In this document: positions 35,184 through 64,000 of the stretch, piece after piece | How positions within the stretch are numbered: position 1 is the stretch's first letter | Layout of the letters: every line of letters starts with the position of its first letter | The notes under the pieces: generated by a model | Seen by the model: the letters and a program-made list of their open reading frames with translations, nothing else | What the model was told of the DNA's origin: nothing | Databases searched by the model: none | DNA from: Trichostrongylus colubriformis | Taxonomy: Eukaryota > Nematoda > Chromadorea > Rhabditida > Trichostrongylidae | Direction: 5' to 3' | Assembly: GCA_963978905.1 (NCBI GenBank) | Contig: OZ022256.1 | Span: 3,703,501 to 3,767,500 of the forward strand | Length of the DNA: 64,000 nucleotides | Translations under genes and position numbers: made by a program

Positions 35184-35248
35184 TGCAGGGTTCTAAATAT
35201 ATCTTGTCAGTATTGCTAATCATAGCTGGTCCAGAAATTACCTGTCGT

Positions 35249-35318
35249 GCTTCCGTGCAGTCTGCAGCGCGTCAGTCTCATAATCTAAAGGTCGTGAGTT
35301 CGAGCCTCAACGGCAGCA
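35249..35318 (+). tRNA. tRNA-Met(CAT), degenerate
   Basis: Unit I-1. Three bases are missing in the D arm/box A, the T stem and acceptor are mismatched (CTCAACGGCAGC), and only T3 follows. Likely pseudogene. Confidence 0.6.
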
Positions 35319-35432
35319 ATCTTTCTGCTACACGGTGTTTCGTTGCTACAAAACCTCACTTCAACCCTGCAGGGTTCTGAATATATCTTGTCAGTATTAC
35401 TATGCATAGCTCATCCAGAAATCACCTGTCGT

Positions 35433-35505
35433 GCTTCCGTAGCGCAGACGGCAGCGCGTCAGTCTCATAATCTGAAGGTCGTGAGTTCGAGCCTCACTGG
35501 GAGCA
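35433..35505 (+). tRNA. tRNA-Met(CAT)
   Basis: Unit I-2. D-loop AGACGG; acceptor TGGGAGC gives a G-T pair; T4 terminator. Confidence 0.9.
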
Positions 35506-35620
35506 ATCTTTTCGCTACACGGTGTTTCGTTGCTAAAGACCATCACTTAAGCCCTGCAGGGTCCTGAATATATCTTGTCATAAACTGCTAATCATACCTG
35601 GTCCAGAAATTAACAGTCGT

Positions 35621-35693
35621 GCTTCCGTAACGCAGTCGGCAGCGCGTCAGTCTCATAATCTGAAGGTCGTGAGTTCGAGCCTCACCGGGAGCA
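35621..35693 (+). tRNA. tRNA-Met(CAT), box A variant
   Basis: Unit I-3. G10 to A (TAACGC) breaks the first D-stem pair. Confidence 0.88.
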
Positions 35694-35808
35694 ATCTTTT
35701 TGCTGCACGGTGTTTCGTTGCTAAAGGCCCTCACTTCAACCCTGCAGGGTCCGGAATATATCTTGTCATAAACTGCTAATCATACCTGGTCCAGAAATTA
35801 CCCGTGGG

Positions 35809-35881
35809 GCTTCCGTAGCGCAGTCGGCAGCGCGTCAGTCTCATAATCTGAAGGTCGTGAGTTCGAGCCTCACCGGGAGCA
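35809..35881 (+). tRNA. tRNA-Met(CAT)
   Basis: Unit I-4, consensus body; GTGGG-type 5' flank. Confidence 0.95.
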
Positions 35882-35995
35882 ATCTTTTTGCTGCACGGTG
35901 TTTCGTTGCTAAAGGCCCTCACTTCAACCCTGCAGGGTCCTGAATATATCTTGTCAGTTTTGCTAATCATACCTTGTCCAGAAATTAACAGCCGT

Positions 35996-36068
35996 GCTTC
36001 CGTAGCGCAGACGGCAGCGCGTCAGTCTCATAATCTGAAGGTCGTGAGTTCGAGCCTCACCGGGAGCA
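35996..36068 (+). tRNA. tRNA-Met(CAT)
   Basis: Unit I-5, D-loop AGACGG. Confidence 0.94.
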
Positions 36069-36182
36069 ATCTTTTTGCTGCACGGTGTTTCGTTGCTAAA
36101 GACCCTCACTTCAGCCCTGCAGGGTCCTGAATATATCTTGTCAGTATTGCTAATCATAGCTGGTCCGAAAATTTCCTGTCGT

Positions 36183-36255
36183 GCTTCCGTAGCGCAGTCG
36201 GCAGCGCGTCAGTCTCATAATCTGGAGGTCGTGAGTTCGAGCCTCACCGGGAGCA
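36183..36255 (+). tRNA. tRNA-Met(CAT)
   Basis: Unit I-6; single change in the variable-loop side (CTGGAGG for CTGAAGG). Confidence 0.93.
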
Positions 36256-36369
36256 ATCTTTTTGCTGCACGGTGTTTCGTTGCTAAAGAACCTCACTTCA
36301 GCCCTGCAGGGTCCTGAATATATCTTGTCAGTATTGCTAATCATACCTTGTCCAGAAATTAACAGCCGT

Positions 36370-36442
36370 GCTTCCGTAGCGCAGTCGGCAGCGCGTCAGT
36401 CTCATAATCTGAAGGTCGTGAGTTCGAGCCTCACCGGGAGCA
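36370..36442 (+). tRNA. tRNA-Met(CAT)
   Basis: Unit I-7, consensus. Confidence 0.95.
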
Positions 36443-36555
36443 ATCTTTTTGCTGCACGGTGTTTCGTTGCTAAAGGCCCTCACTTCAACCCTGCAGGGTC
36501 CTGAATATATCTTGTCAGTTTTGCTAATCATAGCTGGTCCAAAAATTACCTGGGG

Positions 36556-36628
36556 GCTTCCGTAGCGCAGTCGGCAGCGCGTCAGTCTCATAATCTGAAG
36601 GTCGTGAGTTCGAGCCTCACCGGGAGCA
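36556..36628 (+). tRNA. tRNA-Met(CAT)
   Basis: Unit I-8, consensus; preceding spacer one base short. Confidence 0.95.
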
Positions 36629-36742
36629 ATCTTTTTGCTGCACGGTGTTTCGTTGCTAAAGACCCTCACTTCAGCCCTGCAGGGTCCTGAATATATCTTG
36701 TCAGTATTGCTAATCATAGCTGGTCCAAAAATTTCCTGTCGT

Positions 36743-36815
36743 GCTTCCGTAGCGCAGTCGGCAGCGCGTCAGTCTCATAATCTGAAGGTCGTGAGTTCGA
36801 GCCTCACCGGGAGCA
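36743..36815 (+). tRNA. tRNA-Met(CAT)
   Basis: Unit I-9, consensus. Confidence 0.95.
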
Positions 36816-36929
36816 ATCTTTTTGCTGCACGGTGTTTCGTTGCTAAAGAACCCCACTTCAGCCCTGCAGGGTCCTGAATATATCTTGTCAGTATTGCTAA
36901 TTATACCTTGTCCAGAAATTAACAGTCGT

Positions 36930-37002
36930 GCTTCCGTAGCGCAGTCGGCAGCGCGTCAGTCTCATAATCTGAAGGTCGTGAGTTCGAGCCTCACCGGGAG
37001 CA
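36930..37002 (+). tRNA. tRNA-Met(CAT)
   Basis: Unit I-10, consensus. Confidence 0.95.
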
Positions 37003-37116
37003 ATCTTTTTGCTGCACGGTGTTTCGTTGCTAAAGACCATCACTTAAGCCCTGCAGGGTCCTGAATATATCTTGTCAGTTTTGCTAATCATAGCTGGTCC
37101 AAAAATTACCTGTGGG

Positions 37117-37189
37117 GCTTCCGTAGCGCAGTTGGCAGCGCGTCAGTCTCATAATCTGAAGGTCGTGAGTTCGAGCCTCACCGGGAGCA
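37117..37189 (+). tRNA. tRNA-Met(CAT)
   Basis: Unit I-11; D-loop AGTTGG. Confidence 0.94.
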
Positions 37190-37303
37190 ATCTTTTTGCT
37201 GCACGGTGTTTCGTTGCTAAAGACCATCACTTAAGCCCTGCAGGGTCCTGAACATATCTTGTCAGTTTTGCTAATCATAGCTGGTCCAAAAATATCCTGT
37301 CGT

Positions 37304-37376
37304 GCTTCCGTAGCGCAGTCGGCAGCGCGTCAGTCTCATAATCTGAAGGTCGTGAGTTGGAGCCTCACCGGGAGCA
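37304..37376 (+). tRNA. tRNA-Met(CAT), T-loop variant
   Basis: Unit I-12; T-loop TTGGAGC, losing the invariant C56 and weakening box B. Confidence 0.88.
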
Positions 37377-37490
37377 ATCTTTTTGCTACACCGTGCTTCG
37401 TTGCTAAAGACCCTCACTTCAGCCCTGCAGGGTTCTGAATATATCTTGTCAGTATTACTATGCATAGCTCATCCAGAAATCACCTGTCGT

Positions 37491-37563
37491 GCTTCCGTAG
37501 CGCAGTCGGCAGCGCGTCAGTCTCATAATCTGAAGGTCGTGAGTTGGAGCCTCACCGGGAGCA
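37491..37563 (+). tRNA. tRNA-Met(CAT), T-loop variant
   Basis: Unit I-13; T-loop TTGGAGC. Confidence 0.88.
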
Positions 37564-37677
37564 ATCTTTTTGCTACACCGTGCTTCGTTGCTAAAGACCC
37601 TCACTTCAGCCCTGCAGGGTCCTGAATATATCTTGTCAGTATTACTATGCATAGCTCATCCAGAAATCACCTGTCGT

Positions 37678-37750
37678 GCTTCCGTAGCGCAGACGGCAGC
37701 GCGTCAGTCTCATAATCTGAAGGTCGTGAGTTCGAGCTTCACTGGGAGCA
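37678..37750 (+). tRNA. tRNA-Met(CAT), T-arm variant
   Basis: Unit I-14; AGACGG D-loop, TTCAC T stem (wobble) and TGGGAGC acceptor. Confidence 0.88.
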
Positions 37751-37864
37751 ATCTTTTTGCTACACCGTGTTTCGTTGCTAAAGACCCTCACTTCAGCCCT
37801 GCAGGGTTCTGAATATATCTTGTCAGTATTACTATGCATAGCTCATCCAGAAATCACCTGTCGT

Positions 37865-37937
37865 GCTTCCGTAGCGCAGACGGCAGCGCGTCAGTCTCAT
37901 AATCTGAAGGTCGTGAGTTCGAGCCTCACCGGGAGCA
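37865..37937 (+). tRNA. tRNA-Met(CAT)
   Basis: Unit I-15; D-loop AGACGG. Confidence 0.94.
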
Positions 37938-38051
37938 ATCTTTTTGCTGCACGGTGTTTCGTTGCTAAAGACCCTCACTTAAGCCCTGCAGGGTCCTGAA
38001 TATATCTTGTCAGTTTTGCTAATCATACCTGGTCCAGAAATTAACAGTCGT

Positions 38052-38124
38052 GCTTCCGTAACGCAGTCGGCAGCGCGTCAGTCTCATAATCTGAAGGTCG
38101 TGAGTTCGAGCCTCACCGGGAGCA
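38052..38124 (+). tRNA. tRNA-Met(CAT), box A variant
   Basis: Unit I-16; TAACGC. Confidence 0.88.
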
Positions 38125-38238
38125 ATCTTTTTGCTGCACGGTGTTTCGTTGCTAAAGGCCCTCACTTCAACCCTGCAGGGTCCTGAATATACCTTGTCAG
38201 TATTGCTAATCATACCTGGTCCAGAAATTAACAGTCGT

Positions 38239-38311
38239 GCTTCCGTAGCGCAGTCGGCAGCGCGTCAGTCTCATAATCTGAAGGTCGTGAGTTCGAGCCT
38301 CACCGGGAGCA
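38239..38311 (+). tRNA. tRNA-Met(CAT)
   Basis: Unit I-17, consensus. Confidence 0.95.
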
Positions 38312-38425
38312 ATCTTTTTGCTGCACGGTGTTTCGTTGCTAAAGGCCCTCACTTCAACCCTGCAGGGTCCTGAATATATCTTGTCAGTTTTGCTAATCAT
38401 ACCTGGTCCAGAAATTAACAGTCGT

Positions 38426-38498
38426 GCTTCCGTAGCGCAGTCGGCAGCGCGTCAGTCTCATAATCTGAAGGTCGTGAGTTCGAGCCTCACCGGGAGCA
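38426..38498 (+). tRNA. tRNA-Met(CAT)
   Basis: Unit I-18, consensus. Confidence 0.95.
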
Positions 38499-38612
38499 AT
38501 CTTTTTGCTGCACGGTGTTTCGTTGCTAAAGGCCCTCACTTCAACCCTGCAGGGTCCTGAATATATCTTGTCAGTTTTGCTAATCATACCTGGTCCAGAA
38601 ATTAACAGTCGT

Positions 38613-38685
38613 GCTTCCGTAGCGCAGTCGGCAGCGCGTCAGTCTCATAATCTGAAGGTCGTGAGTTCGAGCCTCACCGGGAGCA
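38613..38685 (+). tRNA. tRNA-Met(CAT)
   Basis: Unit I-19, consensus. Confidence 0.95.
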
Positions 38686-38799
38686 ATCTTTTTGCTGCAC
38701 GGTGTTTCGCTGCTAAAGACCCTCACTTAAGCCCTGCAGGGTCCTGAATATATCTTGTCAGTTTTGCTAATCATACCTGGTCCAGAAATTAACAGTCGT

Positions 38800-38872
38800 G
38801 CTTCCGTAACGCAGTCGGCAGCGCGTCAGTCTCATAATCTGAAGGTCGTGAGTTCGAGCCTCACCGGGAGCA
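38800..38872 (+). tRNA. tRNA-Met(CAT), box A variant
   Basis: Unit I-20; TAACGC. Confidence 0.88.
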
Positions 38873-38986
38873 ATCTTTTTGCTGCACGGTGTTTCGTTGC
38901 TAAAGGCCCTCACTTCAACCCTGCAGGGTCCTGAATATATCTTGTCAGTTTTGCTAATCATACCTGGTCCAGAAATTAACAGTCGT

Positions 38987-39059
38987 GCTTCCGTAGCGCA
39001 GTCGGCAGCGCGTCAGTCTCATAATCTGAAGGTCGTGAGTTCGAGCCTCACCGGGAGCA
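38987..39059 (+). tRNA. tRNA-Met(CAT)
   Basis: Unit I-21, consensus. Confidence 0.95.
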
Positions 39060-39173
39060 ATCTTTTTGCTGCACGGTGTTTCGTTGCTAAAGACCCTCAC
39101 TTAAGCCCTGCAGGGTCCTGAATATATCTTGTCAGTTTTGCTAATCATACCTGGTCCAGAAATTAACAGTCGT

Positions 39174-39246
39174 GCTTCCGTAACGCAGTCGGCAGCGCGT
39201 CAGTCTCATAATCTGAAGGTCGTGAGTTCGAGCCTCACCGGGAGCA
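39174..39246 (+). tRNA. tRNA-Met(CAT), box A variant
   Basis: Unit I-22; TAACGC. Confidence 0.88.
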
Positions 39247-39360
39247 ATCTTTTTGCTGCACGGTGTTTCGTTGCTAAAGACCATCACTTAAGCCCTGCAG
39301 GGTCCTGAATATATCTTGTCAGTTTTGCTAATCATACCTGGTCCAAAAATTACCTGTGGG

Positions 39361-39433
39361 GCTTCCGTAGCGCAGTCGGCAGCGCGTCAGTCTCATAATC
39401 TGAAGGTCGTGAGTTCGAGCCTCACCGGGAGCA
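39361..39433 (+). tRNA. tRNA-Met(CAT)
   Basis: Unit I-23, consensus; GTGGG-type 5' flank. Confidence 0.95.
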
Positions 39434-39547
39434 ATCTTTTTGCTGCACGGTGTTTCGTTGCTAAAGACCCTCACTTAAGCCCTGCAGGGTCCTGAATATA
39501 TCTTGTCAGTTTTGCTAATCATACCTGGTCCAGAAATTAACAGTCGT

Positions 39548-39620
39548 GCTTCCGTAACGCAGTCGGCAGCGCGTCAGTCTCATAATCTGAAGGTCGTGAG
39601 TTCGAGCCTCACCGGGAGCA
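39548..39620 (+). tRNA. tRNA-Met(CAT), box A and terminator variant
   Basis: Unit I-24; TAACGC, and the T5 run is broken to TTCTT. Confidence 0.85.
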
Positions 39621-39734
39621 ATCTTCTTGCTGCACGGTGTTTCGTTGCTAAAGACCATCACTTAAGCCCTGCAGGGTCCTGAATATATCTTGTCAGTTTT
39701 GCTAATCATACCTGGTCCAAAAATTACCTGTGGG

Positions 39735-39807
39735 GCTTCCGTAGCGCAGTCGGCAGCGCGTCAGTCTCATAATCTGAAGGTCGTGAGTTCGAGCCTCACC
39801 GGGAGCA
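39735..39807 (+). tRNA. tRNA-Met(CAT)
   Basis: Unit I-25, consensus. Confidence 0.95.
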
Positions 39808-39921
39808 ATCTTTTTGCTGCACGGTGTTTCGTTGCTAAAGACCCTCACTTCAGCCCTGCAGGGTCCTGAATATATCTTGTCAGTATTGCTAATCATACCT
39901 GGTCCAGAAATTAACAGTCGT

Positions 39922-39994
39922 GCTTCCGTAGCGCAGTCGGCAGCGCGTCAGTCTCATAATCTGAAGGTCGTGAGTTCGAGCCTCACCGGGAGCA
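39922..39994 (+). tRNA. tRNA-Met(CAT)
   Basis: Unit I-26, consensus. Confidence 0.95.
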
Positions 39995-40108
39995 ATCTTT
40001 TTGCTGCACGGTGTTTCGTTGCTAAAGACCATCACTTAAGCCCTGCAGGGTCCTGAATATATCTTGTCAGTTTTGCTAATCATACCTGGTCCAAAAATTA
40101 CCTGTGGG

Positions 40109-40181
40109 GCTTCCGTAGCGCAGTCGGCAGCGCGTCAGTCTCATAATCTGAAGGTCGTGAGTTCGAGCCTCACCGGGAGCA
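40109..40181 (+). tRNA. tRNA-Met(CAT)
   Basis: Unit I-27, consensus. Confidence 0.95.
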
Positions 40182-40295
40182 ATCTTTTTGCTGCACGGTG
40201 TTTCGTTGCTAAAGACCCTCACTTAAGCCCTGCAGGGTTCTGAATATATCTTGTCAGTTTTGCTAGTCATAGCTGGTCCAAAAATTTCCTGTCGT

Positions 40296-40368
40296 GCTTC
40301 CGTAGCGCAGACGGCAGCGCGTCAGTCTCATAATCTGAAGGTCGTGAGTTCGAGCCTCACCGGGAGCA
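40296..40368 (+). tRNA. tRNA-Met(CAT)
   Basis: Unit I-28; AGACGG. Confidence 0.94.
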
Positions 40369-40483
40369 ATCTTTTTGCTACACCGTGTTTCGTTGCTAAA
40401 GGCCCTCACTTCAACCCTGCAGGGTCCTGAATATATCTTGTCATAAACTGCTAATCATACCTGGTCCAGAAATTACCCGTGGG

Positions 40484-40556
40484 GCTTCCGTAGCGCAGTC
40501 GGCAGCGCGTCAGTCTCATAATCTGAAGGTCGTGAGTTCGAGCCTCACCGGGAGCA
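40484..40556 (+). tRNA. tRNA-Met(CAT)
   Basis: Unit I-29, consensus; 188-bp spacing. Confidence 0.95.
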
Positions 40557-40670
40557 ATCTTTTTGCTGCACGGTGTTTCGCTGCTAAAGACCCTCACTTC
40601 AACCCTGCAGGGTCCTGAATATATCTTGTCAGTTTTGCTAATCATAGCTGGTCCAAAAAATTCCTGTCGT

Positions 40671-40743
40671 GCTTCCGTAGCGCAGTCGGCAGCGCGTCAG
40701 TCTCATAATCTGAAGGTCGTGAGTTCGAGCCTCACCGGGAGCA
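40671..40743 (+). tRNA. tRNA-Met(CAT)
   Basis: Unit I-30, consensus. Confidence 0.95.
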
Positions 40744-40858
40744 ATCTTTTTGCTACACCGTGTTTCGTTGCTAAAGACCCTCACTTCAACCCTGCAGGGT
40801 CCTGAATATATCTTGTCATAAACTGCTAATCATACCTGGTCCAGAAATTAACAGTCGT

Positions 40859-40931
40859 GCTTCCGTAGCGCAGACGGCAGCGCGTCAGTCTCATAATCTG
40901 AAGGTCGTGAGTTCGAGCCTCACCGGGAGTA
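40859..40931 (+). tRNA. tRNA-Met(CAT), acceptor variant
   Basis: Unit I-31; AGACGG, and C72 to T (GGGAGTA) makes G1-T72. Confidence 0.88.
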
Positions 40932-41045
40932 ATCTTTTTGCTACACCGTGCTTCGTTGCTAAAGACCCTCACTTCAGCCCTGCAGGGTTCTGAATATATC
41001 TTGTCAGTTTTGCTAGTCATAGCTGGTCCAAAAATTTCCTGTCGT

Positions 41046-41118
41046 GCTTCCGTAGCGCAGACGGCAGCGCGTCAGTCTCATAATCTGAAGGTCGTGAGTT
41101 CGAGCCTCACCGGGAGCA
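41046..41118 (+). tRNA. tRNA-Met(CAT)
   Basis: Unit I-32; AGACGG; its 3' spacer is split by the retrotransposon. Confidence 0.94.
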
Positions 41119-41208
41119 ATCTTTTTGCTACACCGTTCTTCGTTGCTAAAGACCCTCACTTCAGCCCTGCAGGGTTCTGAATATATCTTGTCAGTATTGC
41201 TAATCATA

Positions 41209-44200
41209 GGTGGTGTTGTCCGCTCCTCCACGTGGTGCCACTGGAAACTACCTAGTCACGGTAGGCCGAACGCGGACGATACGATTCCGGCGACAGACCC
41301 TCGTGACAAGTCGGCCGAGGAACGCTCGAGTCACAACACAATGAAGGATGGTCACTTACGATGTAGAGGAAAAGGCTAGGGCGTACCCCGGAAGCGACGC
41401 GCGCCTTTATCGCCCGATTGGCGTGTCAAATGAAAAGCAAGGGCTACCTACTGAGCAAGGGCGTGGAAGGCTGAAGAAGTTAGCCCTAAATCAGGCCACA
41501 ACTCGATTCGCGGCTCTGAATGTTGGATCGATGACAGGAAAATCGAGGGAAGTCGCAGCAGCTCTGAAGGCGAGACGAATTGATGTCTGCGCTGTCCAGG
41601 AGACGAAGTGGGCAGGAGCGAAAGCGAAAGACATTGGAGAAGGATATAAAATTCTGTATAATGGAATTGCTAGAACGAGAAACGGAGTTGGAATTATTGT
41701 ATCTGAAAAATTCCGCGACGCCATTTTTGAAGTGGAAAGATATGACGACCGTCTGATGAAAGTTGTTTTTGTCATTGAATCGCGGAAGATTCATTTCTTC
41801 ACGGCACGCTCCGCAAGCTGGATGCTCGGCTTTGGAGAAGGAAGCTTTCTGGAACTTGCTCGATAGTAAGACCATGCTAGTACCAGCTGATGAGCTCTTA
41901 TTCGTTGCCGGAGATCTAAACGGGCATGTCGGGAAGCACAGTAACGGACATCCTTGCCATGGCGACTTTGGGTACGGCGCCCAAAACGATGATGGCAACC
42001 GCATTTTGGACTATGCCGATGCCCATGATCTCATAATACTGAACACGTGGTACATAAAACGAGATTCTCATCTGGCGACGTACCACAGTGGAAGGAACTC
42101 GTCGCAAATCGATTTTATTCTTATGAGAAGAAAGGACCGATGGCTAGCAAGGGACGTAAAGGTCATTCCTTGCGAGACTGTAGCAACTCAGCATCGTCCA
42201 CTAGTAGGCACATTCTCACTGCGACCACCAAAGCACAAGTATGCGGAGCGTACTGGACCAGCGAGGATAAAGTGGTGGAGGTTCAGAGAGAACGAAGCTG
42301 AGGTAATTGGACGGGTGGCACTGCCGAACCTCACTTCTGTTGAAGATACCTGGATCGCGGCAAAGAAGAACATCTTAGCAGCTGCTTGTACAGTACTGGG
42401 CTACACAAAGACCGGTAGGAAGCGCATCGACAAGGAAGCATGGCTGTGGACAGAAGAAGTTCAGTCCTGCGTAAGAAAGAAAAAGGCATTATACCATGCT
42501 TATCTCCAAGATAGGACTGCTGAAAACTGGACCGCTTACCGATCCGCGAAAGCAGAAGCGAAGAAAGCTGTAGCGAAGACTAAGGCGGCTCGATTTGAAG
42601 AACTGTACCGCAAGCTGGACACTCGTGAAGGTGAGAAAGACCTGTACAAGCTTGTAAGATCCCGAAATCGAAGGACTGAGGATACTGCGAAATTCTACGG
42701 TATCATGGACGAAAAAGGACAGCTTCTGTCAAACCCTCCAGATGTTCGTGAAAGATGGAGAGCATACTTTGAAATAATTTCAACTGAGGAGTTTGCTCAC
42801 CCGCCGATAGAGGATGCAGTTCCAACAGAGGGGGCTGTTCCCATGATTACTCCTGCGGAGGTTACAGAAGCACTGAAGAAGATGAACAATGGTAAGGCGA
42901 CCGGACCTGACGACATCGCTGCCGAAATTTGGAAGTCAAGTCTCTGGGATCCGTCCATCTGGCTGTCCTCACTATTCAACCTGATAGTGAAAGAGCGTTG
43001 CATCCCCAAGGATTGGACTTCAAGCATAACCATTCCAATCTTCAAGAGGAAGGGTTCCCCAGCAGAATGTTCGAGTTATCGGCCGGTACGGCTCCTCACT
43101 CACACCATGAAGGTTTTCGAGAGAATTCTGGATAAGCGCGTGCGTGATATCGTTTCACTTAGCGCTAACCAGTGCGGGTTTGTATGCAACCGCAGCACGA
43201 CTGATGCAATATATGCGGCTAGGCTGCTCGTGGAGAAGCACCGAGAAAAGTCAAAGACGGTGCATCTTGGATTTCTCGATCTGGAGAAAGCGTTTGACCG
43301 TGTACCGCACGATGCGATATAGTACGCGTTGAGGAAACACAATGTTCCAGAGGAATTGGTGGAGTGGATAAAGCTGCTGTACAGGAACCCCACCAGTTGT
43401 GTCAGAACGGCAGCGGGAACATCAAAGCCTTTCCAAATCACCGTAGGCGTACATCAAGGCTCCGCGTTGTCCCCACTACTCTTCAATATAGTCCTGGACG
43501 TTGTGACTAGGGACCTGCAACAACCAGTGCCTTGGACGCTTTTGTATGCCGACGATGTCATGCTCGCATCCGAGGACCGGCTCAGCTTACAACTGCAGGT
43601 CCAATCTTGGAATGACAGATTGGCGCGCTTCGGACTGCGGCTGAATGCAAGAAAGTCAGTGTACTTGACAAACGATACGTCGTTTCTTGGAACCGTGCAA
43701 GTGGACGGCATAGACTTGCCAAGGTCAAGTGCATTCTGCTATCTGGGGTCGACGATCGCTCAAGACGGGAACATCATGGACGAGGTCAATTCAAGAATAT
43801 CGGCAGCGTGGCATAAGTGGCGAACAGCAACTGCTGTTCTCTGCGACAGGAAGGTCAGCACCAAGCTGAAGTCAAAAATATATCGGACAGTTGTGCGACC
43901 CGTAGCGTTATACGGTTCTGAGTGTTGGCCAGTTACGAAAGAGGCCGAAAGACGCCTAGGCGTCATGGAAACAAAAATGCTGAGATGGTCTTCTGGTCTG
44001 ACTCAGCTGGACCGCATACGCAACGAAGATCTGCGAGATTGTTTCGGAGTCGTCCCAATCCAAGATAAGCTACGTGAATCCAGATTGAGATGGTACGGGC
44101 ACGTACTGCGTGCTGATGTAGACTCAGTCGTCAAAAAAGCGACGCTGCACGAAGTGGCCGGAGAAAGACCTCGGGGAAGACCCAGGCAACGTTGGATGGA

Positions 44201-55629: not shown

Positions 55630-55743
55630 ATCTTTTTGCTGCACGGTGTTTCGTTGCTAAAGACCCTCACTTAAGCCCTGCAGGGTCCTGAATATATCTT
55701 GTCAGTTTTGCTAATCATACCTGGTCCAGAAATTAACAGTCGT

Positions 55744-55816
55744 GCTTCCGTAACGCAGTCGGCAGCGCGTCAGTCTCATAATCTGAAGGTCGTGAGTTCG
55801 AGCCTCACCGGGAGCA
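55744..55816 (+). tRNA. tRNA-Met(CAT), box A variant
   Basis: Unit III-17; TAACGC. Confidence 0.88.
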
Positions 55817-55930
55817 ATCTTTTTGCTGCACGGTGTTTCGTTGCTAAAGGCCCTCACTTCAACCCTGCAGGGTCCTGAATATATCTTGTCAGTATTGCTA
55901 ATCATACCTGGTCCAGAAATTAACAGTCGT

Positions 55931-56003
55931 GCTTCCGTAGCGCAGTCGGCAGCGCGTCAGTCTCATAATCTGAAGGTCGTGAGTTCGAGCCTCACCGGGA
56001 GCA
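55931..56003 (+). tRNA. tRNA-Met(CAT)
   Basis: Unit III-18, consensus. Confidence 0.95.
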
Positions 56004-56117
56004 ATCTTTTTGCTGCACGGTGTTTCGTTGCTAAAGGCCCTCACTTCAACCCTGCAGGGTCCTGATTATATCTTGTCAGTTTTGCTAATCATACCTGGTC
56101 CAGAAATTAACAGTCGT

Positions 56118-56190
56118 GCTTCCGTAGCGCAGTCGGCAGCGCGTCAGTCTCATAATCTGAAGGTCGTGAGTTCGAGCCTCACCGGGAGCA
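56118..56190 (+). tRNA. tRNA-Met(CAT)
   Basis: Unit III-19, consensus; 5' spacer has a private TGATTATATC change. Confidence 0.95.
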
Positions 56191-56304
56191 ATCTTTTTGC
56201 TGCACGGTGTTTCGTTGCTAAAGGCCCTCACTTCAACCCTGCAGGGTCCTGAATATATCTTGTCAGTTTTGCTAATCATACCTGGTCCAGAAATTAACAG
56301 TCGT

Positions 56305-56377
56305 GCTTCCGTAGCGCAGTCGGCAGCGCGTCAGTCTCATAATCTGAAGGTCGTGAGTTCGAGCCTCACCGGGAGCA
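56305..56377 (+). tRNA. tRNA-Met(CAT)
   Basis: Unit III-20, consensus. Confidence 0.95.
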
Positions 56378-56491
56378 ATCTTTTTGCTGCACGGTGTTTC
56401 GTTGCTAAAGACCCTCACTTAAGCCCTGCAGGGTCCTGAATATATCTTGTCAGTTTTGCTAATCATACCTGGTCCAGAAATTAACAGTCGT

Positions 56492-56564
56492 GCTTCCGTA
56501 ACGCAGTCGGCAGCGCGTCAGTCTCATAATCTGAAGGTCGTGAGTTCGAGCCTCACCGGGAGCA
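56492..56564 (+). tRNA. tRNA-Met(CAT), box A variant
   Basis: Unit III-21; TAACGC. Confidence 0.88.
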
Positions 56565-56678
56565 ATCTTTTTGCTGCACGGTGTTTCGTTGCTAAAGGCC
56601 CTCACTTCAACCCTGCAGGGTCCTGAATATATCTTGTCAGTATTGCTAATCATACCTGGTCCAGAAATTAACAGTCGT

Positions 56679-56751
56679 GCTTCCGTAGCGCAGTCGGCAG
56701 CGCGTCAGTCTCATAATCTGAAGGTCGTGAGTTCGAGCCTCACCGGGAGCA
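56679..56751 (+). tRNA. tRNA-Met(CAT)
   Basis: Unit III-22, consensus. Confidence 0.95.
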
Positions 56752-56866
56752 ATCTTTTTGCTGCACGGTGTTTCGTTGCTAAAGGCCCTCACTTCAACCC
56801 TGCAGGGTCCTGAATATATCTTGTCATAAACTGCTAATCATACCTGGTCCAGAAATTAACAGTCGT

Positions 56867-56939
56867 GCTTCCGTAGCGCAGACGGCAGCGCGTCAGTCTC
56901 ATAATCTGAAGGTCGTGAGTTCGAGCCTCACCGGGAGTA
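56867..56939 (+). tRNA. tRNA-Met(CAT), acceptor variant
   Basis: Unit III-23; AGACGG, GGGAGTA. Confidence 0.88.
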
Positions 56940-57053
56940 ATCTTTTTGCTACACCGTGCTTCGTTGCTAAAGACCCTCACTTCAGCCCTGCAGGGTTCTG
57001 AATATATCTTGTCAGTTTTGCTAGTCATAGCTGGTCCAAAAATTTCCTGTCGT

Positions 57054-57126
57054 GCTTCCGTAGCGCAGACGGCAGCGCGTCAGTCTCATAATCTGAAGGT
57101 CGTGAGTTCGAGCCTCACCGGGAGCA
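57054..57126 (+). tRNA. tRNA-Met(CAT)
   Basis: Unit III-24; AGACGG; last before RTE copy 3. Confidence 0.94.
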
Positions 57127-57216
57127 ATCTTTTTGCTACACCGTGCTTCGTTGCTAAAGACCCTCACTTCAGCCCTGCAGGGTTCTGAATATATCTTGTC
57201 AGTATTGCTAATCATA

Positions 57217-60200
57217 GGTGGTGTTGTCCGCTCCTCCACGTGGTGCCACTGGAAACTACCTAGTCACGGTAGGCCGAACGCGGACGATACGATTCCGGCG
57301 ACAGACCCTCGTGACAAGTCGGCCGAGGAACGCTCGAGTCACAACACAATGAAGGATGGTCACTTACGATGTAGAGGAAAAGGCTAGGGCGTACCCCGGA
57401 AGCGACGCGCGCCTTTATCGCCCGATTGGCGTGTCAAATGAAAAGCAAGGGCTACCTACTGAGCAAGGGCGTGGAAGGCTGAAGAAGTTAGCCCTAAATC
57501 AGGCCACAACTCGATTCGCGGCTCTGAATGTTGGATCGATGACAGGAAAATCGAGGGAAGTCGCAGCAGCTCTGAAGGCGAGACGAATTGATGTCTGCGC
57601 TGTCCAGGAGACGAAGTGGGCAGGAGCGAAAGCGAAAGACATTGGAGAAGGATATAAAATTCTGTATAATGGAATTGCTAGAACGAGAAACGGAGTTGGA
57701 ATTATTGTATCTGAAAAATTCCGCGACGCCATTTTTGAAGTGGAAAGATATGACGACCGTCTGATGAAAGTTGTTTTTGTCATTGAATCGCGGAAGATTC
57801 ATTTCTTCACGGCACGCTCCGCAAGCTGGATGCTCGGCTTTGGAGAAGGAAGCTTTCTGGAACTTGCTCGATAGTAAGACCATGCTAGTACCAGCTGATG
57901 AGCTCTTATTCGTTGCCGGAGATCTAAACGGGCATGTCGGGAAGCACAGTAACGGACATCCTTGCCATGGCGACTTTGGGTACGGCGCCCAAAACGATGA
58001 TGGCAACCGCATTTTGGACTATGCCGATGCCCATGATCTCATAATACTGAACACGTGGTACATAAAACGAGATTCTCATCTGGCGACGTACCACAGTGGA
58101 AGGAACTCGTCGCAAATCGATTTTATTCTTATGAGAAGAAAGGACCGATGGCTAGCAAGGGACGTAAAGGTCATTCCTTGCGAGACTGTAGCAACTCAGC
58201 ATCGTCCACTAGTAGGCACATTCTCACTGCGACCACCAAAGCACAAGTATGCGGAGCGTACTGGACCAGCGAGGATAAAGTGGTGGAGGTTCAGAGAGAA
58301 CGAAGCTGAGGTAATTGGACGGGTGGCACTGCCGAACCTCACTTCTGTTGAAGATACCTGGATCGCGGCAAAGAAGAACATCTTAGCAGCTGCTTGTACA
58401 GTACTGGGCTACACAAAGACCGGTAGGAAGCGCATCGACAAGGAAGCATGGCTGTGGACAGAAGAAGTTCAGTCCTGCGTAAGAAAGAAAAAGGCATTAT
58501 ACCATGCTTATCTCCAAGATAGGACTGCTGAAAACTGGACCGCTTACCGATCCGCGAAAGCAGAAGCGAAGAAAGCTGTAGCGAAGACTAAGGCGGCTCG
58601 ATTTGAAGAACTGTACCGCAAGCTGGACACTCGTGAAGGTGAGAAAGACCTGTACAAGCTTGTAAGATCCCGAAATCGAAGGACTGAGGATACTGCGAAA
58701 TTCTACGGTATCATGGACGAAAAAGGACAGCTTCTGTCAAACCCTCCAGATGTTCGTGAAAGATGGAGAGCATACTTTGAAATAATTTCAACTGAGGAGT
58801 TTGCTCACCCGCCGATAGAGGATGCAGTTCCAACAGAGGGGGCTGTTCCCATGATTACTCCTGCGGAGGTTACAGAAGCACTGAAGAAGATGAACAATGG
58901 TAAGGCGACCGGACCTGACGACATCGCTGCCGAAATTTGGAAGTCAAGTCTCTGGGATCCGTCCATCTGGCTGTCCTCACTATTCAACCTGATAGTGAAA
59001 GAGCGTTGCATCCCCAAGGATTGGACTTCAAGCATAACCATTCCAATCTTCAAGAGGAAGGGTTCCCCAGCAGAATGTTCGAGTTATCGGCCGGTACGGC
59101 TCCTCACTCACACCATGAAGGTTTTCGAGAGAATTCTGGATAAGCGCGTGCGTGATATCGTTTCACTTAGCGCTAACCAGTGCGGGTTTGTATGCAACCG
59201 CAGCACGACTGATGCAATATATGCGGCTAGGCTGCTCGTGGAGAAGCACCGAGAAAAGTCAAAGACGGTGCATCTTGGATTTCTCGATCTGGAGAAAGCG
59301 TTTGACCGTGTACCGCACGATGCGATATAGTACGCGTTGAGGAAACACAATGTTCCAGAGGAATTGGTGGAGTGGATAAAGCTGCTGTACAGGAACCCCA
59401 CCAGTTGTGTCAGAACGGCAGCGGGAACATCAAAGCCTTTCCAAATCACCGTAGGCGTACATCAAGGCTCCGCGTTGTCCCCACTACTCTTCAATATAGT
59501 CCTGGACGTTGTGACTAGGGACCTGCAACAACCAGTGCCTTGGACGCTTTTGTATGCCGACGATGTCATGCTCGCATCCGAGGACCGGCTCAGCTTACAA
59601 CTGCAGGTCCAATCTTGGAATGACAGATTGGCGCGCTTCGGACTGCGGCTGAATGCAAGAAAGTCAGTGTACTTGACAAACGATACGTCGTTTCTTGGAA
59701 CCGTGCAAGTGGACGGCATAGACTTGCCAAGGTCAAGTGCATTCTGCTATCTGGGGTCGACGATCGCTCAAGACGGGAACATCATGGACGAGGTCAATTC
59801 AAGAATATCGGCAGCGTGGCATAAGTGGCGAACAGCAACTGCTGTTCTCTGCGACAGGAAGGTCAGCACCAAGCTGAAGTCAAAAATATATCGGACAGTT
59901 GTGCGACCCGTAGCGTTATACGGTTCTGAGTGTTGGCCAGTTACGAAAGAGGCCGAAAGACGCCTAGGCGTCATGGAAACAAAAATGCTGAGATGGTCTT
60001 CTGGTCTGACTCAGCTGGACCGCATACGCAACGAAGATCTGCGAGATTGTTTCGGAGTCGTCCCAATCCAAGATAAGCTACGTGAATCCAGATTGAGATG
60101 GTACGGGCACGTACTGCGTGCTGATGTAGACTCAGTCGTCAAAAAAGCGACGCTGCACGAAGTGGCCGGAGAAAGACCTCGGGGAAGACCCAGGCAACGT

Positions 60201-60339
60201 TGGATGGATGTCATACGAAATGACATGAAGGGTGGGACTCCATCCCGAAGACGCTGAAGACCGGATAAGATGGCGTCATCGTTCAAGCAAAGGACCCTGC
60301 TGTGCGGGACAAACGCTAAGAAGAAGAAGAAGAAGAAGA
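57217..60339 (+). mobile_element. RTE-clade retrotransposon, copy 3
   Basis: Offset 7630 bp from copy 2; same sequence, tail and flanking AGTATTGCTAATCATA (57201-57216, 60340-60355). Confidence 0.92.
57356..60257 (+). pseudogene. RTE endonuclease/reverse transcriptase, copy 3
   Basis: Same lesions: 2-base loss near 57812-57815 and TAG at 59328-59330. YADD at 59553-59564. Confidence 0.93.
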
Positions 60340-60379
60340 AGTATTGCTAATCATACCTGGTCCAGAAATTAACAGTCGT

Positions 60380-60452
60380 GCTTCCGTAGCGCAGTCGGCA
60401 GCGCGTCAGTCTCATAATCTGAAGGTCGTGAGTTCGAGCCTCACCGGGAGCA
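60380..60452 (+). tRNA. tRNA-Met(CAT)
   Basis: Unit IV-1, consensus. Confidence 0.95.
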
Positions 60453-60567
60453 ATCTTTTTGCTACACCGTGTTTCGTTGCTAAAGACCCTCACTTCAACC
60501 CTGCAGGGTCCTGAATATATCTTGTCATAAACTGCTAATCATACCTGGTCCAGAAATTAACAGTCGT

Positions 60568-60640
60568 GCTTCCGTAGCGCAGTCGGCAGCGCGTCAGTCT
60601 CATAATCTGAAGGTCGTGAGTTCGAGCCTCACCGGGAGCA
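60568..60640 (+). tRNA. tRNA-Met(CAT)
   Basis: Unit IV-2, consensus. Confidence 0.95.
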
Positions 60641-60754
60641 ATCTTTTTGCTACACCGTGCTTCGTTGCTAAAGACCCTCACTTCAGCCCTGCAGGGTTCT
60701 GAATATATCTTGTCAGTTTTGCTAATCATAGCTGGTCCAAAAATATCCTGTCGT

Positions 60755-60827
60755 GCTTCCGTAGCGCAGTCGGCAGCGCGTCAGTCTCATAATCTGAAGG
60801 TCGTGAGTTGGAGCCTCACCGGGAGCA
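60755..60827 (+). tRNA. tRNA-Met(CAT), T-loop variant
   Basis: Unit IV-3; TTGGAGC. Confidence 0.88.
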
Positions 60828-60941
60828 ATCTTTTTGCTACACCGTGCTTCGTTGCTAAAGACCCTCACTTCAGCCCTGCAGGGTCCTGAATATATCTTGT
60901 CAGTATTACTATGCATAGCTCATCCAGAAATCACCTGTCGT

Positions 60942-61014
60942 GCTTCCGTAGCGCAGACGGCAGCGCGTCAGTCTCATAATCTGAAGGTCGTGAGTTCGAG
61001 CTTCACTGGGAGCA
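60942..61014 (+). tRNA. tRNA-Met(CAT), T-arm variant
   Basis: Unit IV-4; AGACGG, TTCAC, TGGGAGC. Confidence 0.88.
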
Positions 61015-61128
61015 ATCTTTTTGCTACACCGTGTTTCGTTGCTAAAGACCCTCACTTAAGCCCTGCAGGGTCCTGAATATATCTTGTCAGTTTTGCTAAT
61101 CATACCTGGTCCAGAAATTAACAGTCGT

Positions 61129-61201
61129 GCTTCCGTAACGCAGTCGGCAGCGCGTCAGTCTCATAATCTGAAGGTCGTGAGTTCGAGCCTCACCGGGAGC
61201 A
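61129..61201 (+). tRNA. tRNA-Met(CAT), box A variant
   Basis: Unit IV-5; TAACGC. Confidence 0.88.
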
Positions 61202-61315
61202 ATCTTTTTGCTGCACGGTGTTTCGTTGCTAAAGGCCCTCACTTCAACCCTGCAGGGTCCTGAATATATCTTGTCAGTATTGCTAATCATACCTGGTCCA
61301 GAAATCACCTGTCGT

Positions 61316-61388
61316 GCTTCCGTAGCGCAGACGGCAGCGCGTCAGTCTCATAATCTGAAGGTCGTGAGTTCGAGCTTCACTGGGAGCA
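61316..61388 (+). tRNA. tRNA-Met(CAT), T-arm variant
   Basis: Unit IV-6; AGACGG, TTCAC, TGGGAGC, in a hybrid spacer context (CATACCTGGTCCAGAAATCA) suggesting unit exchange. Confidence 0.88.
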
Positions 61389-61502
61389 ATCTTTTTGCTA
61401 CACCGTGTTTCGTTGCTAAAGACCCTCACTTAAGCCCTGCAGGGTCCTGAATATATCTTGTCAGTTTTGCTAATCATAGCTGGTCCAAAAATTTCCTGTC
61501 GT

Positions 61503-61575
61503 GCTTCCGTAGCGCAGTCGGCAGCGCGTCAGTCTCATAATCTGAAGGTCGTGAGTTCGAGCCTCACCGGGAGCA
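61503..61575 (+). tRNA. tRNA-Met(CAT), terminator variant
   Basis: Unit IV-7; consensus body, TTCTT. Confidence 0.9.
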
Positions 61576-61689
61576 ATCTTCTTGCTGCACGGTGTTTCGT
61601 TGCTAAAGACCATCACTTAAGCCCTGCAGGGTCCTGAATATATCTTGTCAGTTTTGCTAATCATACCTGGTCCAAAAATTACCTGTGGG

Positions 61690-61762
61690 GCTTCCGTAGC
61701 GCAGTCGGCAGCGCGTCAGTCTCATAATCTGAAGGTCGTGAGTTCGAGCCTCACCGGGAGCA
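61690..61762 (+). tRNA. tRNA-Met(CAT)
   Basis: Unit IV-8, consensus. Confidence 0.95.
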
Positions 61763-61876
61763 ATCTTTTTGCTGCACGGTGTTTCGTTGCTAAAGACCCT
61801 CACTTCAGCCCTGCAGGGTCCTGAATATATCTTGTCAGTATTGCTAATCATACCTGGTCCAGAAATTAACAGTCGT

Positions 61877-61949
61877 GCTTCCGTAGCGCAGTCGGCAGCG
61901 CGTCAGTCTCATAATCTGAAGGTCGTGAGTTCGAGCCTCACCGGGAGCA
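61877..61949 (+). tRNA. tRNA-Met(CAT)
   Basis: Unit IV-9, consensus. Confidence 0.95.
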
Positions 61950-62063
61950 ATCTTTTTGCTGCACGGTGTTTCGTTGCTAAAGGCCCTCACTTCAACCCTG
62001 CAGGGTCCTGAATATATCTTGTCAGTTTTGCTAATCATACCTGGTCCAGAAATTAACAGTCGT

Positions 62064-62136
62064 GCTTCCGTAGCGCAGTCGGCAGCGCGTCAGTCTCATA
62101 ATCTGAAGGTCGTGAGTTCGAGCCTCACCGGGAGCA
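62064..62136 (+). tRNA. tRNA-Met(CAT)
   Basis: Unit IV-10, consensus. Confidence 0.95.
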
Positions 62137-62250
62137 ATCTTTTTGCTGCACGGTGTTTCGTTGCTAAAGGCCCTCACTTCAACCCTGCAGGGTCCTGAAT
62201 ATATCTTGTCAGTTTTGCTAATCATACCTGGTCCAGAAATTAACAGTCGT

Positions 62251-62323
62251 GCTTCCGTAGCGCAGTCGGCAGCGCGTCAGTCTCATAATCTGAAGGTCGT
62301 GAGTTCGAGCCTCACCGGGAGCA
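62251..62323 (+). tRNA. tRNA-Met(CAT)
   Basis: Unit IV-11, consensus. Confidence 0.95.
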
Positions 62324-62437
62324 ATCTTTTTGCTGCACGGTGTTTCGTTGCTAAAGGCCCTCACTTCAACCCTGCAGGGTCCTGAATATATCTTGTCAGT
62401 TTTGCTAATCATACCTGGTCCAGAAATTAACAGTCGT

Positions 62438-62510
62438 GCTTCCGTAGCGCAGTCGGCAGCGCGTCAGTCTCATAATCTGAAGGTCGTGAGTTCGAGCCTC
62501 ACCGGGAGCA
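62438..62510 (+). tRNA. tRNA-Met(CAT)
   Basis: Unit IV-12, consensus. Confidence 0.95.
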
Positions 62511-62624
62511 ATCTTTTTGCTGCACGGTGTTTCGTTGCTAAAGACCCTCACTTAAGCCCTGCAGGGTCCTGAATATATCTTGCCAGTTTTGCTAATCATA
62601 CCTGGTCCAGAAATTAACAGTCGT

Positions 62625-62697
62625 GCTTCCGTAACGCAGTCGGCAGCGCGTCAGTCTCATAATCTGAAGGTCGTGAGTTCGAGCCTCACCGGGAGCA
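62625..62697 (+). tRNA. tRNA-Met(CAT), box A and terminator variant
   Basis: Unit IV-13; TAACGC; TTCTT. Confidence 0.85.
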
Positions 62698-62811
62698 ATC
62701 TTCTTGCTGCACGGTGTTTCGTTGCTAAAGACCATCACTTAAGCCCTGCAGGGTCCTGAATATATCTTGTCAGTTTTGCTAATCATACCTGGTCCAAAAA
62801 TTACCTGTGGG

Positions 62812-62884
62812 GCTTCCGTAGCGCAGTCGGCAGCGCGTCAGTCTCATAATCTGAAGGTCGTGAGTTCGAGCCTCACCGGGAGCA
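62812..62884 (+). tRNA. tRNA-Met(CAT)
   Basis: Unit IV-14, consensus. Confidence 0.95.
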
Positions 62885-62998
62885 ATCTTTTTGCTGCACG
62901 GTGTTTCGTTGCTAAAGACCCTCACTTCAGCCCTGCAGGGTCCTGAATATATCTTGTCAGTATTGCTAATCATACCTGGTCCAGAAATTAACAGTCGT

Positions 62999-63071
62999 GC
63001 TTCCGTAGCGCAGTCGGCAGCGCGTCAGTCTCATAATCTGAAGGTCGTGAGTTCGAGCCTCACCGGGAGCA
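62999..63071 (+). tRNA. tRNA-Met(CAT)
   Basis: Unit IV-15, consensus. Confidence 0.95.
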
Positions 63072-63185
63072 ATCTTTTTGCTGCACGGTGTTTCGTTGCT
63101 AAAGACCCTCACTTAAGCCCTGCAGGGTTCTGAATATATCTTGTCAGTTTTGCTAATCATACCTGGTCCAAAAATTACCTGTGGG

Positions 63186-63258
63186 GCTTCCGTAGCGCAG
63201 TCGGCAGCGCGTCAGTCTCATAATCTGAAGGTCGTGAGTTCGAGCCTCACCGGGAGCA
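63186..63258 (+). tRNA. tRNA-Met(CAT)
   Basis: Unit IV-16, consensus. Confidence 0.95.
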
Positions 63259-63372
63259 ATCTTTTTGCTGCACGGTGTTTCGTTGCTAAAGACCCTCACT
63301 TCAGCCCTGCAGGGTCCTGAATATATCTTGTCAGTATTGCTAATCATACCTGGTCCAGAAATTAACAGTCGT

Positions 63373-63445
63373 GCTTCCGTAGCGCAGTCGGCAGCGCGTC
63401 AGTCTCATAATCTGAAGGTCGTGAGTTCGAGCCTCACCGGGAGCA
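63373..63445 (+). tRNA. tRNA-Met(CAT)
   Basis: Unit IV-17, consensus. Confidence 0.95.
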
Positions 63446-63559
63446 ATCTTTTTGCTGCACGGTGTTTCGTTGCTAAAGACCATCACTTAAGCCCTGCAGG
63501 GTCCTGAATATATCTTGTCAGTTTTGCTAATCATACCTGGTCCAAAAATTACCTGTGGG

Positions 63560-63632
63560 GCTTCCGTAGCGCAGTCGGCAGCGCGTCAGTCTCATAATCT
63601 GAAGGTCGTGAGTTCGAGCCTCACCGGGAGCA
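63560..63632 (+). tRNA. tRNA-Met(CAT), terminator variant
   Basis: Unit IV-18; consensus body, TTCTT. Confidence 0.9.
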
Positions 63633-63746
63633 ATCTTCTTGCTGCACGGTGTTTCGTTGCTAAAGACCATCACTTAAGCCCTGCAGGGTCCTGAATATAT
63701 CTTGTCAGTTTTGCTAATCATACCTGGTCCAAAAATTACCTGTGGG

Positions 63747-63819
63747 GCTTCCGTAGCGCAGTCGGCAGCGCGTCAGTCTCATAATCTGAAGGTCGTGAGT
63801 TCGAGCCTCACCGGGAGCA
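63747..63819 (+). tRNA. tRNA-Met(CAT)
   Basis: Unit IV-19, consensus. Confidence 0.95.
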
Positions 63820-63933
63820 ATCTTTTTGCTGCACGGTGTTTCGTTGCTAAAGACCCTCACTTCAGCCCTGCAGGGTCCTGAATATATCTTGTCAGTATTG
63901 CTAATCATACCTGGTCCAGAAATTAACAGTCGT

Positions 63934-64000
63934 GCTTCCGTAGCGCAGTCGGCAGCGCGTCAGTCTCATAATCTGAAGGTCGTGAGTTCGAGCCTCACCG
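63934..64000 (+). tRNA. tRNA-Met(CAT), cut by window end
   Basis: Unit IV-20; 67 of 73 bases visible, all consensus. Confidence 0.9.

What the first reader, a model, noticed from the sequence alone, without database searches (positions are those of the whole stretch)
35184..64000. A satellite made of elongator tRNA-Met genes: 104 head-to-tail copies
Every 187-bp unit carries a complete tRNA-Met(CAT) gene with internal promoter boxes and, in nearly all, a T5 terminator. Tandem tRNA arrays are known (for example the Xenopus tRNA-Met repeat and Entamoeba arrays), but a single-isoacceptor satellite with a monomer of near-nucleosomal length is unusual. Either it supplies very high tRNA-Met dosage, or it is a satellite that uses TFIIIC/Pol III sites structurally (boundary, heterochromatin or replication-pausing roles). 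Both are inference.
Basis: partly seen in the sequence, partly recalled or inferred. Interest (0 to 1): 0.88.

Follow-up and report, generated by a model that had tools for sequence, protein, structure and literature searches.

The report
Nematode satellite of methionine tRNA genes
One 44-kb stretch of a nematode chromosome holds 142 tandem copies (some damaged) of the gene for the everyday methionine tRNA, 141 of the 147 matches to that gene found in the genome, and it likely supplies most of that tRNA, much as ribosomal RNA comes from repeated genes.

Summary
The array is real. The array continues past the window to 142 units over 43.6 kb, with a fourth RTE copy and one LTR retrotransposon. 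The host is a rhabditid nematode (331 Mb, six large chromosomes; COX1 95% to a Rhabditida cluster). A genome scan of the tRNA core gives 147 matches: 141 in the array and 6 dispersed genes, 3 of which have exactly the array's tRNA. The 29-nt spacer motif occurs only in the array. Between copies the tRNA is about five times less diverse than the spacer; 98 of 142 units keep both promoter boxes, cloverleaf, anticodon and terminator. Best reading: an amplified, rDNA-like tRNA gene locus kept working by selection and homogenised by unequal exchange, with the RTE marking multi-unit block duplications. Transcription was not tested. A silent passenger satellite is the main rival; a structural role has no positive evidence beyond a weakly supported invariant palindrome in the spacer. 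Tandem tRNA arrays are known; this unit size, gene share and host make it a new variant.

The parts
35182..41207 (+). Array block 1: 32 tRNA-Met units, the first degenerate (tRNA remnant from about 35246)
41208..44331 (+). RTE-like non-LTR retrotransposon copy 1 (frame break near 41760-41866, in-frame stop at 43320-43322, (GAA)n tail)
44332..49585 (+). Array block 2: 28 units
49586..52709 (+). RTE copy 2, identical to copy 1
52710..57215 (+). Array block 3: 24 units
57216..60339 (+). RTE copy 3, identical to copies 1 and 2
60340..64000 (+). Array block 4: 19 full units and one cut by the window end; the array continues to C1:3782315
36370..36442 (+). Example unit: consensus elongator tRNA-Met(CAT)
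   Evidence: 66.2 bits; this exact 73-nt tRNA occurs in 56 units of the window
36377..36388 (+). Box A of the example unit (tRNA positions 8-19)
   Evidence: read from the sequence; the box definition is recalled; intact in 87 of 103 units
36421..36431 (+). Box B of the example unit (tRNA positions 52-62)
   Evidence: read from the sequence; the box definition is recalled; C56G in 6 of 103 units
36446..36450 (+). T5 terminator of the example unit
   Evidence: read from the sequence; at least T4 in 97 of 103 units
36302..36311 (.). Invariant palindrome CCCTGCAGGG upstream of the example unit's gene, 68-59 bp before it
   Evidence: 11 invariant columns in 139 units; as long a run in 109 of 5,000 permutations; the 29-nt motif matches 140 times in the genome, all in the array

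Best explanation
This is a tandem array of 142 elongator tRNA-Met genes in a nematode, likely a working, rDNA-like tRNA gene locus in which each 187-bp unit would be transcribed separately by RNA polymerase III from its own internal promoter. Shown: the array holds 141 of 147 genome-wide matches to the tRNA core, most units keep promoter boxes, cloverleaf and terminator, and the tRNA plus T-tract varies about fivefold less between copies than the spacer. Shown: neighbouring copies are more alike than distant ones, and multi-unit blocks have been duplicated together with one dead RTE insertion. Inferred: unequal exchange and gene conversion drive this turnover, and selection removes damaged genes while redundancy lets a quarter to a third of units stay impaired. 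Untested: that units are transcribed, how many are active, and in which tissue or stage.
For: Genome share 141 of 147. Three of 6 dispersed genes have exactly the array's consensus tRNA with unrelated flanks. Diversity 0.0169 in the tRNA versus 0.0841 in the spacer over 139 units and 0.0148 versus 0.0761 over 102 window units; variable sites 9 of 73 versus 40 of 105, p=1.5e-4, or 9 versus 33 with identical patterns merged, p=0.004; column permutation 0 of 20,000; tRNA plus T-tract is among the 2 least diverse of 188 (window) and 187 (whole array) rotations. 98 of 142 units strictly intact. Adjacent units differ by 8.04 columns against 10.36 for all pairs, lowest of 300 permutations 9.49. RTE copies share collinear flanks.
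Against: No expression or Pol III data. 44 of 142 units fail at least one strict criterion, and impaired types (C56G, G10A) recur along the array and within the duplicated blocks. Over the whole array the site count is weaker (19 of 73 versus 47 of 104, p=0.012), and the 73-column tRNA alone ranks only 8 of 188 and 7 of 187 rotations. Units with lesions have more diverged spacers by unit (p=0.002) but not by distinct type (p=0.20). Gene conversion confined to the gene could mimic part of the contrast.
Confidence: 0.65

Rival explanations
1. A passenger satellite: a tRNA gene was caught in tandem amplification, most units are silenced like other satellite DNA, and the few dispersed genes do the work. 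Low diversity of the tRNA would reflect conversion or past rather than present use.
For: 44 of 142 units fail a strict criterion; impaired types are carried along in block duplications; the array accumulates transposons; a tRNA cluster is silenced in Arabidopsis seedlings (PMC12419691, whole text).
Against: The conserved part of the unit is the gene and its T-tract, which amplification of whole units alone does not explain; only 6 dispersed genes were found, and only 3 of them have exactly the array's consensus tRNA.
Confidence: 0.2
2. A structural element: TFIIIC/Pol III sites and the conserved upstream palindrome organise chromatin (boundary, clustering or fork pausing), and tRNA output is secondary.
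For: Spacer columns 120-130 are invariant in 139 units, an 11-column run reached in 109 of 5,000 permutations; a human tRNA tandem repeat is implicated as a boundary element (PMC4041453, abstract and passages).
Against: The spacer run is weakly significant and was noticed in the data first. Conservation includes the anticodon arm and T-tract, which a TFIIIC-only role would not need, while 6 window units have a C56G box B. No chromatin data.
Confidence: 0.1
3. An assembly artefact: a few units were expanded, or blocks were duplicated, by misassembly.
For: Three RTE copies are identical and the fourth differs by one base gap; no reads were available to check depth.
Against: 49 distinct unit types among 103 units; blocks of 32, 28 and 24 units that differ in content; a single LTR insertion in one place; flanking sequence without array units on both sides; a chromosome-scale assembly with telomere repeats at the start of two large contigs.
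Confidence: 0.04

Closest known systems
Entamoeba tRNA gene arrays (PMC2652664; abstract and passages)
   Same: tRNA genes in head-to-tail tandem arrays thought to evolve in concert; some array units hold a single tRNA gene, for example [R-TCT]
   Different: There almost all tRNA genes lie in 25 kinds of array unit, over 10% of the genome, and E. histolytica has short tandem repeats between genes; here one isoacceptor in one array was found, with a plain spacer. A protist, not an animal.
Human 1q23.3 tRNA tandem repeat (PMC4041453; abstract and passages)
   Same: Animal tandem repeat carrying tRNA genes, with transposons nearby
   Different: 7.3-kb unit with several isoacceptors (Leu, Gly, Glu, Asp) and CTCF sites, 9-43 units per allele; here a 187-bp unit with one gene and 142 units. 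CTCF was not tested here.
Arabidopsis SYY tRNA cluster (PMC12419691; whole text of a commentary)
   Same: Tandem tRNA genes that give large local gene dosage; silenced in seedlings, active in root cap cells
   Different: 27 Ser-Tyr-Tyr units according to the figure legend; a plant; here one isoacceptor and activity unknown
Xenopus tandemly arrayed tRNA genes (PMC11500080; passages)
   Different: From recall the Xenopus unit is about 3 kb with several tRNA genes; here 187 bp with one gene. Stage of activity unknown here.
5S rDNA and rDNA arrays (recalled)
   Same: Works like one: a tandem array holding most recognised genes for a translation RNA, homogenised and invaded by non-LTR elements
   Different: The product is a tRNA, at least 6 dispersed genes exist, and the RTE is a dispersed family, not site-specific

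Membership tests
Functional elongator tRNA-Met gene | Cloverleaf with CAT anticodon and elongator features (G1-C72, TTC at 54-56) | tested here: met
   103 Rfam matches of 52-66 bits in the window; 102 ARAGORN tRNA-Met
Functional elongator tRNA-Met gene | Box A, box B and T-tract terminator in most units | tested here: met
   78 of 103 in the window, 98 of 142 in all; the rest fail at least one criterion
Functional elongator tRNA-Met gene | Transcribed by Pol III and aminoacylated | not testable with these tools
   No RNA or ChIP data
Satellite-like tandem repeat | Head-to-tail short monomers, homogenised, with multi-unit duplications | tested here: met
   187-bp period; neighbours more alike; shared flanks of the RTE copies
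Satellite-like tandem repeat | Heterochromatic, centromeric or subtelomeric location | tested here: inconclusive
   Array is 3.7 Mb from the start of a 64-Mb contig and the window has no tandem telomere repeat; chromatin unknown
tRNA-derived SINE | Dispersed copies that share the unit outside the tRNA | tested here: not met
   The 29-nt spacer motif matches 140 times at up to 3 mismatches, all in the array; dispersed genes share the tRNA only
Entamoeba-type tRNA arrays | Most tRNA genes of the genome organised in tandem arrays | not tested
   The genome-wide tRNA family search did not complete
RTE-clade non-LTR retrotransposon (the insert) | Endonuclease and reverse transcriptase domains | tested here: met
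   RVT_1 above its cut-off in two frames (48.6 and 63.5 against 29.6 bits); Exo_endo_phos weak, 22.4 bits against a cut-off of 24.5
RTE-clade non-LTR retrotransposon (the insert) | Very short 3' UTR of simple repeats, and target-site duplication | tested here: met
   (GAA)n end and a duplicated TATTGCTAATCATA; that is 14 bp, against 6-12 bp given in PMC2887409 (passages)
RTE-clade non-LTR retrotransposon (the insert) | Placement in the RTE clade by a tree | not tested
   No tree was built; relatives by search are Plectus and strongylid reverse transcriptases

The most novel reading that the evidence does not exclude
A nematode has turned one tRNA isoacceptor into an rDNA-like locus: essentially all of its elongator tRNA-Met comes from one satellite of 187-bp, nucleosome-sized transcription units, so that copy number at a single unstable site sets the supply of the tRNA for every internal methionine and can vary between individuals and stages.
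Probability: 0.3. Interest if true: 0.82.

Novelty: new variant of a known kind. Interest (0 to 1): 0.6.

Why it matters
If the units are active, this animal keeps about 96% (141 of 147) of the recognised genes for one tRNA at a single unstable locus, which makes dosage, silencing and copy-number change of one tRNA directly testable. The RTE copies are a built-in marker of block duplications, and the contrast between tRNA and spacer lets one measure selection within a highly redundant tRNA family. It also warns that tRNA gene counts in an assembly can be dominated by one array.

Tried and rejected
Rejected: the tRNA-derived SINE reading (spacer motif found only in the array); independent or site-specific RTE insertions (the family has 36 dispersed places on all six large contigs among the scored candidates, while the three window copies are identical, broken frames included, at the same spacer position with collinear flanks); a location at the very chromosome end (3.7 Mb from the start of a 64-Mb contig).

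Led nowhere: Pfam on 10 large upstream frames, none above cut-off; tRNA core in viral contigs, 0 matches. Nine paper searches on tRNA arrays and satellites listed no paper whose title or abstract start reports such an array; some lists were cut to 20 or 30 papers, and the library holds open-licence PMC texts only.

Not obtained: a genome-wide Rfam tRNA count and a looser tRNA-Met scan (tool busy). The share 141 of 147 therefore holds for matches with up to 3 mismatches in a 58-nt core; more diverged tRNA-Met genes would be missed.
Full report
What is there. The window carries 104 tRNA-Met(CAT) units from 35182 to its end, seen as 102 genes by ARAGORN, 103 Rfam tRNA matches and a TRF period of 187. 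Of 103 spacings 88 are 187, 11 are 188, one is 186 and three are 3,326. The three long gaps hold a 3,124-bp element, identical in all three copies, with a reverse transcriptase above the Pfam cut-off and an endonuclease match just below it, a frame break and an in-frame stop, a (GAA)n tail and a duplicated target TATTGCTAATCATA in the spacer. This fits RTE elements as described in PMC2887409 (abstract and passages), although the duplication is longer than the 6-12 bp given there. The best matches to one of its frames are from Plectus sambesii (58%) and strongylid nematodes (53-57%).

Beyond the window. The window is C1:3703501-3767500 of a 330.9-Mb genome in 52 contigs. I saw the lengths of 23 of 52 contigs: six are 38.9-64.0 Mb and together make 329.6 Mb, and C52 has 13.7 kb. 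C3 and C7 begin with (GCCTAA)n, the nematode telomere repeat (recalled); the start of C5 does not, and those of C1, C6 and C8 were not looked at. C52 encodes mitochondrial proteins under code 5; its COX1 is 95% identical to a Rhabditida cluster, 92% to Litoditis and 90% to Angiostrongylus (rank looked up). So the host is a rhabditid nematode; the species was not identified. With adjacent stretches fetched, the array has 142 units from C1:3738682 to C1:3782315, a fourth RTE copy that differs by one base gap, and one LTR retrotransposon (182-bp LTRs 98.9% identical; 5-bp duplication GTTGC read by eye).

Genome-wide. A 58-nt tRNA core at up to 3 mismatches matches 147 times, against 0 for the reversed control (100 places listed, counts whole). 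By the same rule 141 of these lie in the array, so 6 are dispersed. All 6 were read: 3 have exactly the array's consensus tRNA, one differs at 1 site, one at 2, and one (on C8) at 4, including its 3' end. Their flanks look unrelated to the array spacer (by eye). The 29-nt spacer motif matches 140 times, and the array holds 140 by the same rule. A degenerate array remnant lies at C1:3840270-3840548, 81-83% identical in the longer matches, and no tRNA was found there.

Selection. Units were aligned with the transposons cut out. In the window (102 units; the degenerate first unit and the cut last unit dropped) diversity is 0.0148 in the tRNA, 0.0114 in the next 10 bp with the T-tract and 0.0761 in everything after the tRNA. 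Variable sites are 9 of 73 in the tRNA against 40 of 105 in the spacer beyond the T-tract, p=1.5e-4; with columns of identical pattern merged, 9 against 33, p=0.004. In the whole array (139 units; units 0, 139 and 141 dropped) diversity is 0.0169 against 0.0841, while variable sites are 19 of 73 against 47 of 104, p=0.012. Column permutation reaches the contrast in 0 of 20,000, assuming independent columns. A rotation test that keeps neighbouring columns together puts the 83 columns of tRNA plus T-tract among the 2 lowest of 188 rotations in the window and of 187 in the whole array; the 73-column tRNA alone ranks only 8 and 7, the minimum starting at column 11. The least variable segment found in the window is positions 18-55. 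So conservation of gene plus terminator is supported, but moderately by the strictest test.

Damage. Strictly intact units are 78 of 103 in the window and 98 of 142 in all. Allowing either purine at position 57 and dropping units 0, 139 and 141, 98 of 139 are intact. Lesions include G10A in box A, C56G in box B, mispaired stems, lost T-tracts and one CAT to TAT anticodon. They are denser at the right end: 13 of 22 aligned units from unit 118 on against 28 of 117 before, p=0.0018; the split was chosen after seeing the data. Units with lesions have more diverged spacers by unit (p=0.002), but not by distinct type (p=0.20).

Turnover. There are 49 unit types among 103. Neighbours are more alike than random pairs (8.04 against 10.36 differing columns; lowest of 300 permutations 9.49). 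Runs of identical types recur at shifts of 11, 24 and 28 units. RTE copies 1 and 2 match without a mismatch from 70 bp left of the insert to 1.15 kb right of it; copies 2 and 3 from 430 bp left to 0.7 kb right. Outside the array the RTE family has 36 places on all six large contigs among the 40 of 55 candidates scored, the nearest 99% identical. Units differ on average at 10.2 of 188 columns. The likely order is therefore: diversified array, one RTE insertion, then recent block duplication. That order is inferred.

Mechanism. The best-supported reading is an amplified locus of working tRNA genes. Most units have what Pol III is known to need (box A, box B, T-tract; recalled), and the product part is the conserved part. 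Amplification by unequal exchange and conversion is inferred from the patterns above; transcription is not shown. The main rival is a silent passenger satellite: silencing of a tRNA cluster is reported for Arabidopsis seedlings, with activity in root cap cells (PMC12419691, whole text). A structural role is possible: an 11-column invariant run with the palindrome CCCTGCAGGG lies upstream of each gene, but runs as long arise in 109 of 5,000 permutations, and the 29-column minimum in 199 of 5,000.

Relation to what is known. Tandem tRNA arrays are known in Entamoeba, including single-gene units (PMC2652664, abstract and passages), at human 1q23.3 (PMC4041453, abstract and passages), in Arabidopsis and in Xenopus (PMC11500080, passages). 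A 2010 survey (PMC2888827, abstract and passages) said tRNA tandem repeats had so far been reported only in Entamoeba histolytica. None of the passages I saw describes a single-isoacceptor 187-bp array in a nematode; the searches are listed in Tried and rejected. I rate it a new variant of a known kind.

Noticed in passing
window 28237-31305 and 31303-34371: A 3.07-kb direct duplication, 99.7% identical, with 268-279-bp tandem repeats (25813-29458, 31306-32549), just upstream of the array.
   Followed up: partly
window 8902-9761; also C1:3787754-3788548: A 146-bp tandem repeat (5.9 copies); a 79% relative of 8713-9504 lies about 5 kb beyond the right end of the tRNA array.
   Followed up: no
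C1:3773772-3778593 (L009/L010): A single LTR retrotransposon sits in one array unit, with 182-bp LTRs 98.9% identical and a 5-bp duplication GTTGC; found in one place of the array only.
   Followed up: partly
C1:3767807-3767881: One unit has a CAT to TAT anticodon change and would read as tRNA-Ile(TAT); it also carries G10A and lacks a T4 terminator.
   Followed up: no
spacer of each unit, e.g. window 36302-36311: The palindrome CCCTGCAGGG is invariant in 139 aligned units while most of the spacer varies; weakly significant (109 of 5,000 permutations).
   Followed up: partly
C1:3846626 (minus strand) and C1:3840270-3840548: A solo tRNA-Met gene with the array's consensus tRNA, and a degenerate array remnant, lie 58-64 kb beyond the array.
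   Followed up: partly
right end of the array, units 118-140 (C1:3773369-3782055): Lesioned units are denser here (13 of 22) than in the rest (28 of 117), as expected if array ends escape homogenisation; split chosen after seeing the data.
   Followed up: partly
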